64,000 nucleotides of DNA from CAVYHJ01 sp963768165 [NCBI: uncultured bacterium] (GTDB taxonomy: Bacteria; UBP4; UBA4092), in the NCBI GenBank assembly GCA_963768165.1, contig CAVYHJ010000006.1, forward strand, positions 62,001 to 126,000. The letters are read 5' to 3'. Below are positions 25,962 through 56,917 of the stretch, piece after piece. Under the pieces are notes generated by a model that had not been told where the DNA came from, did no database searches, and worked only from the letters and a program-made list of their open reading frames with translations. Each line of letters opens with the position of its first letter. Position 1 is the stretch's first letter. The position numbers were made by a program, and so were the translations under genes.

Positions 25962-26271
25962 ATGGTCATAGCCATAATCACTGTATTCTCTCTGCTATCT
26001 CAAGTATAAAAATCCTTCAACCGTATTCCCTTCGGAGGATATAGGGAGGATCAGCGAAGGAGAAGCGAAGGAAGGATGAACAATATCGCTATCCCTCATC
26101 TTGCCTTATGGATAATTGATTCTAATTGAGTTGTATATTCCTACTCAATCCCCCCTAAAATCCCCAAAATCATCCCCTTTTTTCTTTTAACCCGAAACTC
26201 CAAACTCGAAACCTGTCTTTTTTATTATACTCCTCTTTCCCTTCTTGTCAATACAATTTATTGGCAGGTCA

Positions 26272-26349
26272 TGCCCCAATTTGTCATTCTGACCCTCGAA
26301 CGCTTTAATCGAGGGGAAGAATCTCTGTGTTCTACCTAAAACAAAGCCA
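26272..26349. repeat. TTGTCATTCT-type intergenic repeat, copy 1
   Basis: The unit runs from GCCCCAATTTGTCATTCTGA through GAAGAATCTCTGTG to TTCTACCTAAAACAAAG. It contains a 7-bp hairpin (CCCTCGA with TCGAGGG). Two related copies lie at 26529-26638 and 26661-26735. The stretch from 25962 to 26271 before it has no gene that I can support. Confidence 0.75.
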
Positions 26350-26360
26350 TCATGCAACTC

Positions 26361-26521
26361 CTATAGATAAACCAATTAAAATCGGGGGGTAATCAGAATC
26401 CCATTAACCCCTAGTTTTCAACTAGGGGAAGACAACCCATGAAATACACCACAAACTGTTTTAACAGTTTATAACTCTCTGGCTAAGAAACACACCTATA
26501 TTCTAATTGGTTTGTCTATAG
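26361..26521. mobile_element. 161-bp element with 22-bp terminal inverted repeats (MITE-like)
   Basis: The ends 26361-26382 and 26500-26521 are inverted copies of one another at 20 of 22 positions, beginning CTATAGA(T/C)AAACCAATTA. Inside are two perfect short hairpins, CCCCTAG/CTAGGGG and AAACTGTT/AACAGTTT. There is no coding potential. It separates copies 1 and 2 of the TTGTCATTCT repeat. Mobility is inferred from the structure only; I could not identify a clear target duplication. Confidence 0.6.
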
Positions 26522-26528
26522 ACATGTC

Positions 26529-26638
26529 CTGTCCCCATTTGTCATTCTAAGCCAGCGTATGGATACATCCCGATTCTCTTTATCGGGAGTGCTCTTTACG
26601 AAGTGAAGAATCCCTTTGTTCTACCTGAAACAAAGCCA
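26529..26638. repeat. TTGTCATTCT-type intergenic repeat, copy 2
   Basis: The copy has the same borders as copies 1 and 3 (CCCCATTTGTCATTCT at the left, TTCTACCTGAAACAAAG at the right) and a different internal 7-bp hairpin (TCCCGAT with ATCGGGA). Confidence 0.75.
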
Positions 26639-26660
26639 ACACCTAACATCTTGACAGTTC

Positions 26661-26735
26661 GTGCCCCCATTTGTCATTCTGAGCGTAGTGCTCTTTACGG
26701 AGTGAAGAATCCCTGTGTTCTACCTCAAACAAAAC
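26661..26735. repeat. TTGTCATTCT-type intergenic repeat, copy 3
   Basis: Shortest copy: CCCCCATTTGTCATTCTGAG, then GAAGAATCCCTGTGTTCTAC and CTCAAACAAA, without the internal hairpin seen in the other two. Confidence 0.75.
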
Positions 26736-33450: not shown

Positions 33451-34452
33451 ATGAAAACAGGTGTCAGTTATTTTGGAAACCGGATGTTGAATCATTTTCT
33501 GGAAGATTTGAAAGATATCAAGGCGCATAATTGCAATTTTATTATACATACCTTTAGCGAAAACGATTATTATTTTTACAAAGATACCATGAAAGATTTC
33601 GTCAAAGCTTCTCACGATCTCGGTTTGGAAGTGTATTTGGACCCGTGGGGAGTGGGGGGAGTTTTTGGCGGGGAGGCGGATTGGAGATGGCTTCCGAATA
33701 ATCTGGATGCTTCACAAATCCGTAATGACGGCATGATTCTCGGACTCGCCTGCCCCAACAATGAGAAATTTCGTGAATTCCTGCGGGACTGGACAAAAGT
33801 CTCTGTAGACATTGGCGCGGATGTTCTCTTTTGGGATGAGCCCCATTTTTATATCCCCGATTGGTCGGGGCATCCCAAAGAAATGTGGGGCTGTTGTTGC
33901 GATGTCTGCAAAGAATTATTTCGGGAACGGTTTGGCCATGACATGCCCAAAGAAAAAAATGAAGAAGTGAAAATCTTTCAGGAAGCCCGTCTTTTTGATT
34001 TTCTCCAAGATATGTGCGACACGGTAAAATCCCTGAATCCCAATGTGAAAAATTGTATCTGTCTACTGCCTCATGAAGAGTTGGTGCCGGGCTGGACTAA
34101 ATTTGTTTCTATGCCTTCGCTCGATATTTTTGGGACCGATCCCTACTGGGTGGTGGCAAAGGAACCTGTAACGGATTATGTAAATTTTTTCTGTGAGTTG
34201 GTTGCCAAATTGGCTCAGGATTTTAAAAAAGAAGGCCAGATATGGATTCAAGCGTTTCGAATTCCCAAAGGGGAAGAACAGGATGTCGCGACAGCAATTG
34301 ACGTTACCTACAACGCAGGAATTCGCAATATTACCGTCTGGGCATATCGCGCTTGTGGTTTTATGTCTCATCTCCAATGCGGTGATTCCGCCAAGGTTTG
34401 GAAAATTATCGGTGATAAATACGGTGAAAAATTGAAACTATCCTCAAAATGA
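33451..34452 (+). CDS. Hypothetical TIM-barrel, glycoside-hydrolase-like protein
   Basis: I do not recognise the family with certainty. The 333-residue sequence reads like a (beta/alpha)8 barrel without a signal peptide. It has WDEPHF near residue 129, a position where glycosidase catalytic acids occur, a cysteine cluster WGCCCDVC near residue 147 like that seen in uncharacterised GH-like proteins, and a late ITVWAYRACG strand. It begins 15 bases after ftsY with GGGAG upstream, and the following pfkB gene overlaps its stop by 4 bases (ATGA), so the two are translationally coupled. A sugar-related activity is inference from the fold and the kinase partner. Confidence 0.6.
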   Translation: MKTGVSYFGNRMLNHFLEDLKDIKAHNCNFIIHTFSENDYYFYKDTMKDFVKASHDLGLEVYLDPWGVGGVFGGEADWRWLPNNLDASQIRNDGMILGLACPNNEKFREFLRDWTKVSVDIGADVLFWDEPHFYIPDWSGHPKEMWGCCCDVCKELFRERFGHDMPKEKNEEVKIFQEARLFDFLQDMCDTVKSLNPNVKNCICLLPHEELVPGWTKFVSMPSLDIFGTDPYWVVAKEPVTDYVNFFCELVAKLAQDFKKEGQIWIQAFRIPKGEEQDVATAIDVTYNAGIRNITVWAYRACGFMSHLQCGDSAKVWKIIGDKYGEKLKLSSK

Positions 34453-35366
34453 AAATTACCATTATCGGCGAAATATTTTATGATGAGATTCACCCCTTCC
34501 GAGGGAAAAAACAAATCGGATTTGGCGGGATACTTTACAATCTCATCGCTCTTGCCAATCTAGCTGATTCATCCACAACCCTAAATCCCATTTCTTTTCT
34601 CTGGACAAAACATTTTTCCAAAGTTAACAAAACCTGCGACCCCTACCCGAATATTCATCTTTCCGGATTAATTCCCAGTAAAATTGGCACAGAGACTGCC
34701 TGTTTGACCTATTCTTCCTGGGACAAACGAACAGAAGAAATTATTTTGTATCATCCGTCAATTCCCTACTCCCGTATCAAAAACTTTCTTGAGGTTGATG
34801 CCATCCTGGTCAATTTCACAGCCCTACGTGATGTTTCATTATCCACACTTAAAAAAATTCGTCGGTCAAGCAATGCTCTTATGATGATTGACTTGCATAG
34901 TTTTCCCTCCAAAATTAGTTCAAAGGGAATACGGTACTCTCATCCTGTTTCAAACTGGCAGGAATGGTTATCCTGCGCCGATATCGTTCAGGGGAATGAA
35001 ATGGAAACTTCGGCATTGCTTGGAGTCCAAATCTATCACGATTCAGATTTAAAAAAATTTCATCAAAAGATTTTGGCAACAGGAGTCAAAATCGTGATTA
35101 CAACATTGGGAGAAAAAGGAGTTCTTGTTTCATGGACTCAAGGACATAGAATCAATTCCCGGAAAATCCCTGCCTGTCCTGTCAAAAAAATCGTGGACAC
35201 AACGGGGAGCGGTGACGTTTTTACCAGTGCGTTCTTATGGCGCTATTTGAACACCCATGATCCTATTCAAAGCGCGAAATATGCCAATCAAATAGCAGCA
35301 TTTAACTGCCAACTAAAAGGCTTGGACGGATTAAAACGCTTACGTTCCCTCCGATTCTCAAAATAA
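34449..35366 (+). CDS. PfkB-family carbohydrate kinase
   Basis: The ribokinase-fold protein of 305 residues carries the C-terminal PfkB signature VDTTGSGDVFTSAF with the catalytic base Asp near residue 256, and QGNEMETSALLG in the middle. The N-terminal GG motif appears as GFGGILYNL near residue 26. The sugar or nucleoside substrate is unknown. The start overlaps the upstream GH-like gene by ATGA, which suggests a coupled two-step use of a sugar. It ends the smc-ftsY transcription unit. Confidence 0.87.
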   Translation: MKITIIGEIFYDEIHPFRGKKQIGFGGILYNLIALANLADSSTTLNPISFLWTKHFSKVNKTCDPYPNIHLSGLIPSKIGTETACLTYSSWDKRTEEIILYHPSIPYSRIKNFLEVDAILVNFTALRDVSLSTLKKIRRSSNALMMIDLHSFPSKISSKGIRYSHPVSNWQEWLSCADIVQGNEMETSALLGVQIYHDSDLKKFHQKILATGVKIVITTLGEKGVLVSWTQGHRINSRKIPACPVKKIVDTTGSGDVFTSAFLWRYLNTHDPIQSAKYANQIAAFNCQLKGLDGLKRLRSLRFSK

Positions 35367-35431
35367 TCGTCCAATTCCCTTAAAACCAATTGTCCACACA
35401 ATAATTCTTTTAAATGAAGTTCTGTATCAGG

Positions 35432-35458
35432 AGCGGAATTGAAATTTTCAATTCCGCT
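35432..35458. repeat. 27-bp palindrome after the pfkB gene
   Basis: Arms of 13 bases (AGCGGAATTGAAA and TTTCAATTCCGCT) are exact inverse complements around one T. No T tract follows, so it is not a standard terminator. A second hairpin with GTGCC/GGCAC and GAGC/GCTC pairs lies at 35480-35513. Confidence 0.75.
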
Positions 35459-35551
35459 TGTAAACCGCTTAAAGGATGGGAGCGTTTAGCCGTTGTGCCA
35501 TTTTGGCACGCTCACCATTTCATGGAAATGATGAAATAATTATTAACAAAT

Positions 35552-35691
35552 GAGATCTCTGAAAAAGTGGATTAAAAAACTTATGGTAAAATTCATAAAT
35601 TTTTATCTCTTGTAGAATCAATGGGTTAGAAAACTTTATACGTTTGCAGAAAGTTAATTTCTATAAAATTTGGTACTTTTTCAGAGGTCTC
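35552..35691. mobile_element. MITE-like element, copy 1 (divergent)
   Basis: The 140-bp element has terminal inverted repeats GAGATCTCTGAAAAAGT and the complement of GAGACCTCTGAAAAAGT (16 of 17 match). AAAT flanks both sides (35548-35551 and 35692-35695) as a 4-bp target duplication. The interior is only distantly similar to the copies at 37193 and 56693, in inverted orientation. No coding capacity. Confidence 0.75.
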
Positions 35692-35695
35692 AAAT

Positions 35696-37188
35696 GTTAA
35701 TCCCAAAATAGTCATTAGGAATCAAGTTTTAAGGATGAAAGGCCAGCTCATAAGGTCTGCCGAGGACCAAAGACCCGAGAACCAAGTTCGTCTTTTCATG
35801 GAAAGGGACAATTTAAGGATCCTTGAATTTCCCTTCTGAATCAAATAGCCACCTACCGCAAAAACCTTATAGCGAATGGTTTTTAAAAAGGGCTTGGATG
35901 TCCCTCCGAGAAGGGCTTGCCGAAAAAGACTCATCAGATTATACGCCAGCATCACGAAATTTAAGGTAGCCTCGGTGGCCCAAAAGTGATGGGTATTAAA
36001 CCGGTCTGCCCCAAAGTCATACTTTACTTCTTTGATACGGTTTTCGGCATCGGCCCGATTGCGATACAGGTCATACACCATCTTGGGAGACAAGTCTACA
36101 TTGGTCACAAAACAACTGTAGCGATACTTCTGGTAGAGGGTTTCGTCCGAAAACAAACGTAATTGTTTTCCCACCGCCTTGGGACGCTTTTCGATTTCCT
36201 GCCGAACCATAATCAGACGTCGGGGAGCCTTCCAGGAATCGGCTTGATAGAAGGTCTCGGCAATCTCCAATCCCTCGTCCAGTTTTAACCATCCCTTCTG
36301 CCGGAGGACCACCGCTTGAAGAGGAGGATAAAACTTGGCCGCCAGGATATAGGACGTCGGACGATGGGTTTCCAGATACTCCATGATTCTATCGCTGTAG
36401 AATCCACTATCCGCTCGAATCAACCCTACACTTTTCCCCTGAAGCTTGTTTAGGGTATCTTCCAAAAAACCTAAAAAATTATTGGTCGTGTGGCTGTCTC
36501 CGGACCGCAGCCAAAAATTAGCCACCATCCGACAATCGGGAATAAATGCCATCAACGGATGATGCGATTTTCTCCCCCGTTTCTTAGGATTATAGCCCTT
36601 CTTGCTCCCTTGCTGTTCCCCATAACGAGTCAGGACCGTGGAATCAAAATCCAAGGTATAGTTGTCAAAATGTATATTCCGAAAAAACCATTGATATAAA
36701 TGCGTGAAAACCCGTTGATTGGTGGCTTGCGTAAATTTATTGAAATAGCGTGCAAAGGCTTTATTCCCCGCCATCCGTTTCCAATCGAAGATCTCCTTGA
36801 CCACTTCATCCTGTCGCGTCACTTCCAAATGCTCAAAACAATTCGCCCCACACCATACCCCGACCCAAAAGTTCTGGATCAATTGACTGGGACGGTACCC
36901 TCGATTAGATCCTTGTTGGGGGAGTGGCGCTTCTTTCAGGGTCTCCTCCATCTGGATTTGCTCCAGCATCTTCCTCAGGATACTCATCCCACCCCAGGGG
37001 GTTATTTCTTTGTCTGTATATTCTATTTTTAGATTCTTCATAATGTCCTTTATTCTTACACACCTTGACCCGTTTTTTAACCCCCCTTTGCCCAGGTCTA
37101 TAGCACTCTATCTATTTAGGTTACCTATCTGTTTCTCTAATGACCGCCATTAGAAACTATTGCCCCTATTGACGAATTTGGGTTTAAC
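35696..37188. mobile_element. IS1380-family insertion sequence
   Basis: The element is about 1.49 kb with one transposase gene on the minus strand. Ends GTTAATCCCAAAATAGTCA and GTTAAACCCAAATTCGTCA (read inward) match at about 20 of 25 positions. It is flanked by AAAT at 35692-35695 and 37189-37192, a 4-bp duplication as expected for this family. It sits exactly between two MITE-like elements. Boundaries are inferred from the inverted repeats. Confidence 0.8.
35722..37041 (-). CDS. IS1380-family transposase
   Basis: The DDE transposase of 439 residues looks intact. Visible are DFDSTVLTRYGEQQGSKKGY with the first catalytic Asp, RADSGFYSDR with the second, and NRADAENRIKEVKYDFGADR with the Glu. 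AAGGA lies about 5 bases upstream of the ATG. The frame is not interrupted, so the element could be active. There is no passenger gene. Confidence 0.93.
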   Translation of the reverse strand: MKNLKIEYTDKEITPWGGMSILRKMLEQIQMEETLKEAPLPQQGSNRGYRPSQLIQNFWVGVWCGANCFEHLEVTRQDEVVKEIFDWKRMAGNKAFARYFNKFTQATNQRVFTHLYQWFFRNIHFDNYTLDFDSTVLTRYGEQQGSKKGYNPKKRGRKSHHPLMAFIPDCRMVANFWLRSGDSHTTNNFLGFLEDTLNKLQGKSVGLIRADSGFYSDRIMEYLETHRPTSYILAAKFYPPLQAVVLRQKGWLKLDEGLEIAETFYQADSWKAPRRLIMVRQEIEKRPKAVGKQLRLFSDETLYQKYRYSCFVTNVDLSPKMVYDLYRNRADAENRIKEVKYDFGADRFNTHHFWATEATLNFVMLAYNLMSLFRQALLGGTSKPFLKTIRYKVFAVGGYLIQKGNSRILKLSLSMKRRTWFSGLWSSADLMSWPFILKT

Positions 37189-37192
37189 AAAT

Positions 37193-37342
37193 GAGACCTC
37201 TGAAAAAGTATAATTTATGCGGAAAATAATAATTGTGCGAACGTACAATTATTCTAGACACTTGATTTCATTGGAGATAAACTTTCTGCAGTTGCAGAAA
37301 GTTTTTTAAAAAGATAGAGAAAGTCACTTTTTCAGTGATCTC
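37193..37342. mobile_element. MITE-like element, copy 2
   Basis: The 150-bp element begins GAGACCTCTGAAAAAGT and ends with the complement of GAGATCACTGAAAAAGT. It is flanked by AAAT (37189-37192 and 37343-37346). It differs from the copy at 56693-56842 at only five positions (about 97% identity). Two internal hairpins, AATAATTGT/ACAATTATT and AAACTTTCTGCA/TGCAGAAAGTTT, are conserved. Confidence 0.88.
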
Positions 37343-37382
37343 AAATGTTGAAGATTTATCTCTAATAAAATCAAGGGTCTAA

Positions 37383-37406
37383 ATTTTTCGGTATTTGCCG
37401 AAAAAT
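37383..37406 (-). terminator. Possible terminator after the era operon
   Basis: A 9-bp stem ATTTTTCGG/CCGAAAAAT with a 6-base loop starts 9 bases after the small membrane-protein gene. Its AT-rich lower half could serve either strand. Confidence 0.4.
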
Positions 37407-37414
37407 AAATTAAG

Positions 37415-37603
37415 TTAGCTATTCCCCGTGAAAAAATGTGGAACTCCATAGAGTAATAAGCCGAGAGTCATGATGATAATTCCGATAAGTAGGAGAAAAG
37501 CGCGGAATGTACCATTTTTGATACGGTCGTCAATAGCCCCGGAAAATCCGTAGCTTGCTAGAATAACTCCCAAGACTGTCATCACGATATAAATATACTT
37601 CAC
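37415..37603 (-). CDS. Small membrane protein, two helices
   Basis: The 62-residue protein has two hydrophobic segments (about 4-22 and 35-54) joined by a basic loop. It starts with GTG overlapping the era stop (GTGA), so translation is coupled. I do not recognise a family; its position at the end of the phoH-era operon is the only clue. Confidence 0.7.
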   Translation of the reverse strand: MKYIYIVMTVLGVILASYGFSGAIDDRIKNGTFRAFLLLIGIIIMTLGLLLYGVPHFFTGNS

Positions 37604-38496
37604 TCTATTTCTCCTTCAAAACCGAATTCTTTAAGCGCTGATGGGTTCTTGCGCCAGTTTTTCTTTACTTTAATCCAAAGGTCTAAGTATACTTGTTTTT
37701 GGAGTAATTTTTCAATCTCTGGTCTGGTTTCTTGTCCCAATTTCTTGAGCATCTGCCCCTGATCCCCGATTAGAATTCCTTTTTGAGATTCTTTTTCAAC
37801 ATAGACTATTGCTTTGACATAGCCCCTATTATTGGGTCTTTCCTGCACTTCTTCCGTAATCACAGCAACGCTGTAGGGGATTTCCTCATGCAATAAAGAA
37901 TATACTTTTTCACGTATCAATTCAGCAATGAGAAATCTTTCTGAGCGGTCGGTCAATGTATCATCAGGAAAATATTTCGGCCCTTCCGGCAGATAGGTTA
38001 CGATTTTATCAATCAAATCATCGCACCCCGTTCCTTGCAATGCTGAAATCGCAATAAGGTCTTTAAATACTTTTAAATCATGGTATTCTTTTAACTTTGC
38101 CGATATATCTTGAGAATACCGGTCAATTTTGTTCAAGACTAAAATAGTGGGTTGTGTGATTCTTTTTAAATATTCCAAAGCAATTTGATCTTCTTCATTT
38201 AATATTTGAGAAGGTTCCATCAAAAACAAAATAATATCTACCTCATTGATAGTTTCGTCAATTTCCCGCATCATGAAATGATGCAGTTGGTCTTGCGGTT
38301 GGTGGATACCTGGCGTGTCAATGAATATTATTTGATAATTGTCTTTGGTAACGACACCCAAAATCCGGGTACGGGTGGTTTGTGGTTTGTGGGAAGTAAC
38401 CGCAATTTTTTCTCCAACTAGGCGGTTTAAAAGCGTGGATTTGCCGACATTGGGCTTCCCAACAATTCCCACGTATCCTGATTTGAACGCATTCAT
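37600..38496 (-). CDS. era: GTPase Era
   Basis: Era binds 16S rRNA and GTP and assists 30S subunit maturation. P-loop GKPNVGKST (13-21), DTPGIH, NKID and a C-terminal KH domain with GDQGQMLKKLG are visible. The reading frame extends upstream for 64 codons but these are antisense-like sequence over the DUF502 gene; ATG 38496 gives the normal 298 residues and overlaps the DUF502 stop (ATGA). It is the fifth gene of phoH-pgpH-ybeY-DUF502-era. Confidence 0.97.
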   Translation of the reverse strand: MNAFKSGYVGIVGKPNVGKSTLLNRLVGEKIAVTSHKPQTTRTRILGVVTKDNYQIIFIDTPGIHQPQDQLHHFMMREIDETINEVDIILFLMEPSQILNEEDQIALEYLKRITQPTILVLNKIDRYSQDISAKLKEYHDLKVFKDLIAISALQGTGCDDLIDKIVTYLPEGPKYFPDDTLTDRSERFLIAELIREKVYSLLHEEIPYSVAVITEEVQERPNNRGYVKAIVYVEKESQKGILIGDQGQMLKKLGQETRPEIEKLLQKQVYLDLWIKVKKNWRKNPSALKEFGFEGEIE

Positions 38497-39140
38497 GAAG
38501 GGATAACGGAACCGGGTTTCGCAAACGCTATCAAGGATCCTGAATCTAATTGCGCAGGTTGGCCAGGGATTGCGGCACCTGCAGAGAGAACCAGTTTGAT
38601 GGCTTCTTCCACCGACATTTTCAGCGGGATGGCTTCCCGGCGCGGCACAGCAACAATAAAACCGGCAGTGGGAGTCGGTGCGGTACAAATAAAAACCATA
38701 ACGGTTGGTTCGCCGGCAATTTTGTCAATTTCTCCTCCGGTAGCCGAAGTAACAAATCCCACAGTCCAGATTCCCTTGGAAGGGTATTGGATCGCAACCA
38801 CTTCTTGAAATATTTTTTTATCACGGGTCAATATGGTTTGACTGACCTGGCGGGTAACGCTATAAATTTTATTGACTAAAGGTATTTTTGCCACGACTTC
38901 TTCCGACATGGTAATCAATTTTCGTCCAAAATAATTATGTGCGATAAAACCGACAAACAGAGTAATGGAAATCAGCAACAATAATCCCAATCCCGGAATT
39001 ACCCGTCCGTCAATCTTCACCCAATCTCGTAACAGGCCATCAACAAAATTAAAACCTGTCCAGACTACATATCCTGTGATGGCAAGTGGAACCAGAACAA
39101 CCAGACCGGTGATAAAATAATATTGTAATTGCTTTATCAT
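38493..39140 (-). CDS. DUF502 family membrane protein
   Basis: The 215-residue protein has two N-terminal membrane segments (about 8-33 and 48-70) and a soluble domain with GFVTSATGG and VPRREAIPLKMSVEEAIKLVLSAG, the DUF502 pattern. Function of the family is unknown. It lies 6 bases after ybeY and overlaps era by 4 bases, in the position that some lineages use for a diacylglycerol kinase gene. Confidence 0.85.
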   Translation of the reverse strand: MIKQLQYYFITGLVVLVPLAITGYVVWTGFNFVDGLLRDWVKIDGRVIPGLGLLLLISITLFVGFIAHNYFGRKLITMSEEVVAKIPLVNKIYSVTRQVSQTILTRDKKIFQEVVAIQYPSKGIWTVGFVTSATGGEIDKIAGEPTVMVFICTAPTPTAGFIVAVPRREAIPLKMSVEEAIKLVLSAGAAIPGQPAQLDSGSLIAFAKPGSVIPS

Positions 39141-56589: not shown

Positions 56590-56692
56590 CCCATTAAACT
56601 TTCCCACTGGAAATGTTAATATAACCATCTTTATATTATCGCTGTTTCAAAGAAGCCAACTTAGAAAATGCCTTCAAATTCTTTTAACATTT

Positions 56693-56842
56693 GAGACCTC
56701 TGAAAAAGTCCAATTTATGTGGAAAATAATAATTGTGCGAACGTACAATTATTCTAAACACTTGATTTCATTGGAGATAAACTTTCTGCAATTGCAGAAA
56801 GTTTTTTAAAAAGATAGAGAAAGTCACTTTTTCAGTGATCTC
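56693..56842. mobile_element. MITE-like element, copy 3
   Basis: The 150-bp copy is identical in length to the one at 37193-37342 with five substitutions. Terminal repeats are GAGACCTCTGAAAAAGT and the complement of GAGATCACTGAAAAAGT (15 of 17). The flanks are ATTT on both sides (56689-56692 and 56843-56846), a 4-bp duplication different from the AAAT at the other copies. It occupies most of the gap between dedA and the GH16 gene. Confidence 0.9.
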
Positions 56843-56917
56843 ATTTATGATATCAATACTCCATACTTTAGATGTTAGCAAGGGTTACTAATTGGAAGAA
56901 CGAATTTCGCTTATCCT

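What the first reader, a model, noticed from the sequence alone, without database searches (positions are those of the whole stretch)
35548..37346. IS1380 element inserted exactly between two MITEs, all with AAAT duplications
Read left to right the order is AAAT-MITE1-AAAT-IS1380-AAAT-MITE2-AAAT. Each unit has its own terminal inverted repeats and shares 4-bp AAAT flanks, and outer bases AAC...GTT are similar as well. This implies three successive insertions into the same or abutting target, or a transposition mechanism that targets its own previous duplications. The MITE termini (GAGACCTCTGAAAAAGT) and IS termini (GTTAA-CCCAAA) differ, so they are probably moved by different transposases with similar target choice.
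Basis: partly seen in the sequence, partly recalled or inferred. Interest (0 to 1): 0.7.

Follow-up and report, generated by a model that had tools for sequence, protein, structure and literature searches.

The report
Mobile-element cluster in twin hairpin sites
Two short, gene-less mobile DNA pieces sit side by side in near-identical small inverted-repeat sites with an unrelated insertion sequence between them; this is an ordinary pile-up of known kinds of jumping DNA, and the shared flanking letters mostly reflect what the short pieces choose as targets.

Summary
The order MITE1 - IS1380 - MITE2 is real, and so are the four AAAT copies. The IS1380 element is 35702-37182. Its borders lie 6 bp inside the AAATs; its immediate flanks are TTAAT and TTTAA. 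All ten placed copies of relatives have an exact 5-bp A+T-rich duplication; this one has none, so it decayed or a rearrangement removed it. The MITE ends (GAGACCTCTGAAAAAGT) resemble those of some IS1182-family elements, not IS1380. The 'AAC...GTT' context is best read as arms of a small inverted repeat whose 4-nt centre was duplicated: ATTAAC-AAAT-GTTAAT (6/6 arms) and TTTAAC-AAAT-GTTGAA (5/6). MITE3 does not fit (3/6). Insertion at inverted-repeat centres recurs in a subset of IS1182 elements surveyed here, and hairpin targeting is published for IS1272 of that family. So: two MITEs in two adjacent, similar hairpin-like sites, plus an IS1380 in the A+T-rich arm between. The order of events is unknown. 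Nothing shows elements targeting their own duplications.

The parts
35542..35547 (.). left arm ATTAAC of the inverted-repeat site of MITE1
   Evidence: pairs 6/6 with GTTAAT 35696-35701
35548..35551 (.). AAAT, left 4-bp target duplication of MITE1
35552..35691 (+). MITE1, 140 bp, no ORF of 60 aa or more inside, ends GAGATCTCTGAAAAAGT / GAGACCTCTGAAAAAGT
35692..35695 (.). AAAT, right target duplication of MITE1
35696..35701 (.). right arm GTTAAT of the MITE1 site; its last 5 bases TTAAT abut the IS1380 left end
35702..37182 (-). IS1380-family insertion sequence, 1481 bp, terminal repeats 35702-35719 and 37165-37182
35722..37041 (-). intact IS1380 transposase, 439 aa
   Evidence: NF033539 E 3.1e-79; PF13701 E 2.2e-53
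37183..37188 (.). left arm TTTAAC of the MITE2 site; its first 5 bases TTTAA abut the IS1380 right end
37189..37192 (.). AAAT, left target duplication of MITE2
37193..37342 (+). MITE2, 150 bp, with two internal palindromes
37343..37346 (.). AAAT, right target duplication of MITE2
37347..37352 (.). right arm GTTGAA of the MITE2 site (5/6 with TTTAAC)
56689..56692 (.). ATTT, left target duplication of MITE3
56693..56842 (+). MITE3, 150 bp, 145/150 identical to MITE2
56843..56846 (.). ATTT, right target duplication of MITE3

Best explanation
The stretch lies between convergent genes. It held two adjacent, near-identical A+T-rich inverted repeats with AAAT centres, roughly ATTAAC-AAAT-GTTAA(W) and TTWAAC-AAAT-GTTGAA. 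A transposase of the IS1182 type, acting in trans, inserted one MITE into the centre of each and duplicated the 4-nt centre. Independently, an IS1380 element inserted into the A+T-rich arm between the two sites. Its expected 5-bp duplication is now imperfect (TTAAT / TTTAA), through one substitution on each side or a later rearrangement. Shown: the three elements, the MITE duplications, the IS family, the resemblance of the MITE ends to ends of some IS1182 elements, and the missing IS duplication. Inferred: mobilisation by an IS1182 transposase, use of the inverted repeat as target, the ancestral site, and the independence of the IS1380 event.
For: MITE duplications AAAT, AAAT, ATTT, 3 of 3 exact. 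MITE-type ends (at most 4 mismatches at each end, 1.0-2.6 kb apart) occur in 12 of 110 IS1182 loci against 0 of 30 IS1380 loci; in the PF01609 set they occur in 2 of 19 loci, both of which are IS1182 places already among the 12; reversed-sequence controls 0. Among the closest is L216 (GAGACCACTGAAAAAG, 396.9 bits, cut-off 270, but with one in-frame stop); L219, L220 and L228 have open frames over the cut-off. Arms 6/6 at MITE1 and 5/6 at MITE2; background in A+T-rich 16-mers of the window 0.07% for 6/6 and 1.4% for 5/6 or better. Arms in the IS1182 survey: mean 4.71/12 against 3.23 shuffled (largest of 2000 shuffles 4.37); 9 of 41 sites have 8/12 or more against a shuffled mean of 0.70 and largest of 5. 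Published hairpin targeting by IS1272 of the IS1182 family (PMC5678879, PMC4923244; passages). IS1380 relatives have an exact 5-bp duplication in 10 of 10 placed copies, the window element does not.
Against: MITE3's site has only 3/6 arm matches. The two good sites share the A+T-rich DNA beside the IS1380 ends, so they are not independent. IS1182 elements with CTAG in the duplication (19 of 41) show no arm excess (mean 3.16). The IS1182 elements with close ends and placed borders (L216, L220) have 9-bp duplications, not 4, and arms of 7/12, below the 8/12 line. MITE-like elements with similar ends have duplications of 4, 5, 8 or 9 bp in different genomes. Most IS1182 loci (98 of 110) do not have MITE-type ends. 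I saw no IS1182-like ORF among the window's ORFs of 150 aa or more (by eye, no profile search), and its genome is not held, so the partner is not shown. IS1272 itself deletes part of the hairpin and makes no duplication.
Confidence: 0.55

Rival explanations
1. Plain A+T-rich target choice: the MITEs prefer 4-bp A+T sites, the inverted arms are chance, and two insertions fell close together.
For: MITE3 has no good arms; the intergenic DNA is 66.5% A+T; the Planctomycetes copies have duplications such as ATTCT and ACATT without arms that I could see by eye.
Against: 6/6 and 5/6 arms at two sites, and 13 of 16 identical positions between the two sites (counted by eye).
Confidence: 0.3
2. The IS1380 joins two loci: homologous recombination between two IS1380 copies, or an IS-linked deletion, fused one MITE-IS junction to another IS-MITE junction.
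For: No exact 5-bp duplication although 10 of 10 placed relatives have one; loss of duplications by such events is reported (PMC11708052, passages).
Against: Both MITE sites are near-identical 16-mers at the same distance from the IS ends, easier to explain by one twin site; one substitution on each side also removes the duplication.
Confidence: 0.12
3. One reading: successive insertions that target duplications left by earlier ones, with IS and MITEs sharing AAAT.
For: Four AAAT copies; abutting elements also in L120 (MITE-AAAAT-MITE) and L091 (IS1182-CGAC-MITE-CGAC).
Against: The IS ends are 6 bp from AAAT and the placed IS1380 relatives make 5-bp duplications; MITE3 is alone with ATTT; abutment is rare.
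Confidence: 0.03

Closest known systems
IS1182-family insertion sequences (NF033551), incl. IS1272
   Same: terminal repeat GAGACC(N)CTGAAAAAG in L216, with L219, L220, L227, L228 and L163 similar; insertion at inverted repeats in a subset (PMC5678879, PMC4923244, passages)
   Different: the window elements are 140-150 bp and carry no transposase; a 4-nt centre is duplicated, whereas IS1272 deletes part of the hairpin and leaves no duplication
Bacterial MITEs in general (review PMC10969869, passages seen)
   Same: short, A+T-rich, terminal repeats, target duplication, intergenic, internal hairpins
   Different: the likely partner family is IS1182; the main text of the review holds no mention of IS1182
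IS1380 family (NF033539)
   Same: transposase, CCC-starting terminal repeats, A+T-rich target
   Different: no exact 5-bp duplication at this copy

Membership tests
IS1380 | transposase of the family above the curated cut-off | tested here: met
   266.6 bits, cut-off 180
IS1380 | terminal inverted repeats starting CC[C/T] | tested here: met
   15/18 counted by eye; CCCAAA at both ends, as in relatives
IS1380 | 5-bp A+T-rich target duplication | tested here: not met
   TTAAT / TTTAA; 10 of 10 placed relatives met. A feature of this insertion, not of the element; placement of six of the ten used the duplication as part of the score
MITE | under about 500 bp, no transposase, paired terminal repeats, target duplication, several copies (definition recalled) | tested here: met
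   140/150/150 bp, 3 copies, 3 of 3 duplications
IS1182-mobilised elements | terminal repeats shared with an IS1182 element | tested here: met
   12 of 110 IS1182 loci, none of 30 IS1380 loci; six of the 12 are copies in one genome with 3-4 mismatches at each end, so six firm loci; none is identical to the window ends at both ends
IS1182-mobilised elements | partner IS1182 in the same genome | not testable with these tools
   the genome is not held
IS1182-mobilised elements | insertion at the centre of an inverted repeat | tested here: inconclusive
   2 of 3 window copies; 9 of 41 IS1182 sites with 8/12 arms or more

The most novel reading that the evidence does not exclude
A branch of IS1182-type transposases inserts into the loop of very short hairpins and duplicates only the loop, the route that the IS1272 authors drew as a possibility (their pathway c). 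MITEs of this branch therefore mark hairpin loops, and paired MITEs mark twin hairpins such as double operators or terminators.
Probability: 0.35. Interest if true: 0.5.

Novelty: new member of a known kind. Interest (0 to 1): 0.28.

Why it matters
It assigns a MITE family of unknown origin to a likely transposase family by its ends, and it turns an odd coincidence (shared AAAT and AAC...GTT) into a testable rule on target choice. If loop duplication is general for a branch of IS1182, it would separate that branch mechanistically from IS1272, which deletes the hairpin. It does not reveal a new kind of system.

Tried and rejected
The organism was not identified.

L009 looked like an IS4 element with the MITE end; its true ends are CACGCCTGTTGATTAACC, so the match is internal and chance. 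L034 looked like a 1.1-kb element; it is two separate MITEs with other DNA between. Twelve viral contigs with one end (L009 and L010 already found) gave one short paired element, L050 (8-bp duplication), and, by eye on long frames and without a profile search, no transposase bounded by such ends. L085 (IS5) has no second end. The viral-contig search for the transposase found no relative. Rfam at gathering scores: nothing in 35300-37700. A 4-bp TTAA duplication in the manner of piggyBac (TTAA target recalled) is possible only if both IS borders move out by 1 bp, and a 6-bp CAAATG only if both move out by 5 bp; the placed relatives use 5 bp next to CC, so I rejected both.

Bacteroidaceae copies (L006, L014, L020, L032) have about 8-9-bp duplications and are probably moved by a different relative. 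Of the 8 loci, 5 show an exact duplication (4, 4, 5, 5, 9 bp) and 3 (L002, L005, L008) show none (read by eye). Of 29 paired elements in the G003 stretches, 8 have an exact duplication of 4-5 bp, 3 of 3 bp, 18 none.

IS1380 relatives not in the count of 10: L041, L054, L055, L057, L059, L060, L066, L067, L117, L118 (no ends with an exact 5-bp duplication that I could place) and L058 (ends found, only 2 bp repeated); L042 and L056 are the same places as L104 and L116; L105, L106, L109-L111 are partial; L061-L065, L068-L071 and L073-L082 were not scanned for ends. The four G094 copies L112-L115 were placed by the terminal repeat alone, the other six with the duplication as part of the score. In the IS1182 arm survey 94 of 110 loci were scanned (L166-L181 were not), and 53 of these 94 gave no borders and were dropped.

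Papers: no paper of the library held has any of the six end sequences. The listed papers of searches (12 of 54; 1 of 1; 2 of 2; 10 of 203) include none on an IS1182-derived MITE as judged from titles and the starts of abstracts; PMC3852290 holds both words and was seen in the listing only.

Full report
What is there. Between a sugar-kinase-like gene (34449-35366, +) and frames on the other strand (a 62-aa ORF 37415-37603 and an Era-like GTPase 37600-38688, both -) the order is ATTAAC-AAAT-MITE1-AAAT-GTTAAT-IS1380-TTTAAC-AAAT-MITE2-AAAT-GTTGAA. The gene names are my reading of the translations, not a search. MITE1 is 35552-35691 and MITE2 is 37193-37342. Their 17-bp ends match 16/17 and 15/17. 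With up to 3 mismatches the window holds 7 such ends against 0.68 expected; one of the seven lies in a 975-aa frame. MITE1 and MITE2 differ over most of their interior but share a 25-nt internal stretch at 84%.

The third copy. MITE3 at 56693-56842 is 145/150 identical to MITE2 and is flanked by ATTT on both sides. It fixes the MITE borders and shows that the 4-bp repeats are target duplications, not part of the element.

The IS. The 439-aa protein is an IS1380 transposase. Its ends are CCCAAAATAGTCATTAGG and CCCAAATTCGTCAATAGG, so the element is 35702-37182. In relatives whose ends could be placed, in one Aliarcobacter plasmid (L104, L107, L108) and three genomes drawn from the Planctomycetes search (L053, L112-L115; L116; L072), the five bases next to CC(C/T) are exactly repeated in 10 of 10 copies, all A+T-rich: TTTAT, ATAAT, ATTAA, TGAAA, TTAAT, TATTA, TTGTA, TTTTA, TTAAA, TTATA. 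Four of the ten were placed without using the duplication; eleven other relatives scanned could not be placed or had no exact 5-bp repeat and are left out. In the window the two fives are TTAAT and TTTAA. So the IS shows no exact duplication, and AAAT is not its target repeat. One change on each side would restore identity, so simple decay is possible; recombination or deletion is the alternative (PMC11708052, passages read).

What moves the MITEs. A genome-wide pattern for both ends at MITE spacing found 8 loci in 6 genomes of diverse bacteria, and one Planctomycetes genome holds 96 + 91 end matches at up to 2 mismatches against 3 + 1 for the reversed pattern. In the Thermoleophilaceae genome a MITE abuts an element whose transposase is IS1182 (298.6 bits, cut-off 270). 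I then surveyed IS1182 loci from three phyla. MITE-type end pairs occur in 12 of 110 IS1182 loci, 0 of 30 IS1380 loci, and 2 of 19 PF01609 loci, both of the latter being IS1182 places already among the 12; reversed controls gave 0. One of the best, L216, reads GAGACCACTGAAAAAG, though its transposase frame has one stop. Six of the twelve are copies in one genome with 3-4 mismatches at each end, so the firm matches are six loci (L163, L216, L219, L220, L227, L228). An IS1182-type transposase is therefore the likely mover; the partner itself was not seen, because the genome is not held.

Why AAC...GTT. Around the 4-nt centre the flanks are inverted: 6 of 6 at MITE1, 5 of 6 at MITE2, 3 of 6 at MITE3; in A+T-rich 16-mers of this window 6/6 occurs at 0.07% and 5/6 or better at 1.4%. 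Across 41 IS1182 sites with placed borders (of 94 loci scanned, out of 110 held) the arms match 4.71/12 on average against 3.23 when left and right flanks are shuffled among sites (largest of 2000 shuffles 4.37); 9 sites reach 8/12 or more against 0.70 expected (largest 5). All nine are among the 22 sites without CTAG; the 19 CTAG sites show no excess. The nine are not all independent (L199-L201 come from one genome, L196-L197 from another), and some borders (L152, and L204 and L206 with 11-12-bp duplications) are uncertain. The two elements with close ends and placed borders, L216 and L220, reach 7/12. IS1272, an IS1182 member, is known to insert in hairpins, five of them shown to be terminators, with several independent insertions at some hairpins, but it deletes part of the hairpin and leaves no duplication (PMC4923244, passages; PMC5678879, abstract and passages). 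The latter paper sketches loop duplication as one possible outcome. The window MITEs fit that sketch at two of three sites.

How it came about. The most economical history is one ancestral A+T-rich stretch with two similar AAAT-centred inverted repeats (13 of 16 positions identical, by eye), one MITE in each, and an IS1380 in the arm between. The order of the three events cannot be told. Abutting elements of this kind exist elsewhere (L120, L091) but are rare: in 190 kb of the Planctomycetes genome four rows (three places) among 96 ends, against 0-2 at ten control offsets. No mechanism that seeks its own duplications is needed.

Verdict. A normal nest of mobile elements: known IS family, probable new IS1182-type MITE family, suggestive but not conclusive evidence for inverted-repeat targeting.

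Noticed in passing
window 26261-26733: Three imperfect copies of a repeat with the words TTTGTCATTCTGA and GAAGAATC. Much the same words stand inside MITEs of the Planctomycetes genome (L021, L039, L040), and a similar one in L005.
   Followed up: no
window 37228-37253 and 37279-37304; same in 56693-56842: Two internal palindromes in MITE2 and MITE3; all three MITEs fold better as single-stranded DNA than their shuffles (z -3.6 to -4.4).
   Followed up: partly
window 35432-35458: Perfect 13-bp inverted repeat with a 1-nt centre just after the kinase-like gene, not followed by a T run, in the same convergent intergenic region.
   Followed up: no
L006, L014, L020, L032 (Bacteroidaceae); L050 and L102 2530-2620 (viral contigs): MITE-like elements with nearly the same 17-bp ends but about 8-9-bp duplications: similar ends with different duplication lengths in different genomes.
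   Followed up: partly
L091 609-2463: An IS1182 element whose right end is abutted by a MITE with similar ends and CGAC duplications; the IS's left flank is CTAG and its right flank is not, so its own duplication is not seen.
   Followed up: partly
L196, L197 (Thermoleophilaceae); L158: IS1182-type elements sitting in the centre of long inverted repeats, for example CGACTGCTTTG-TGGC-CAAAGCAGTCG in L196.
   Followed up: partly
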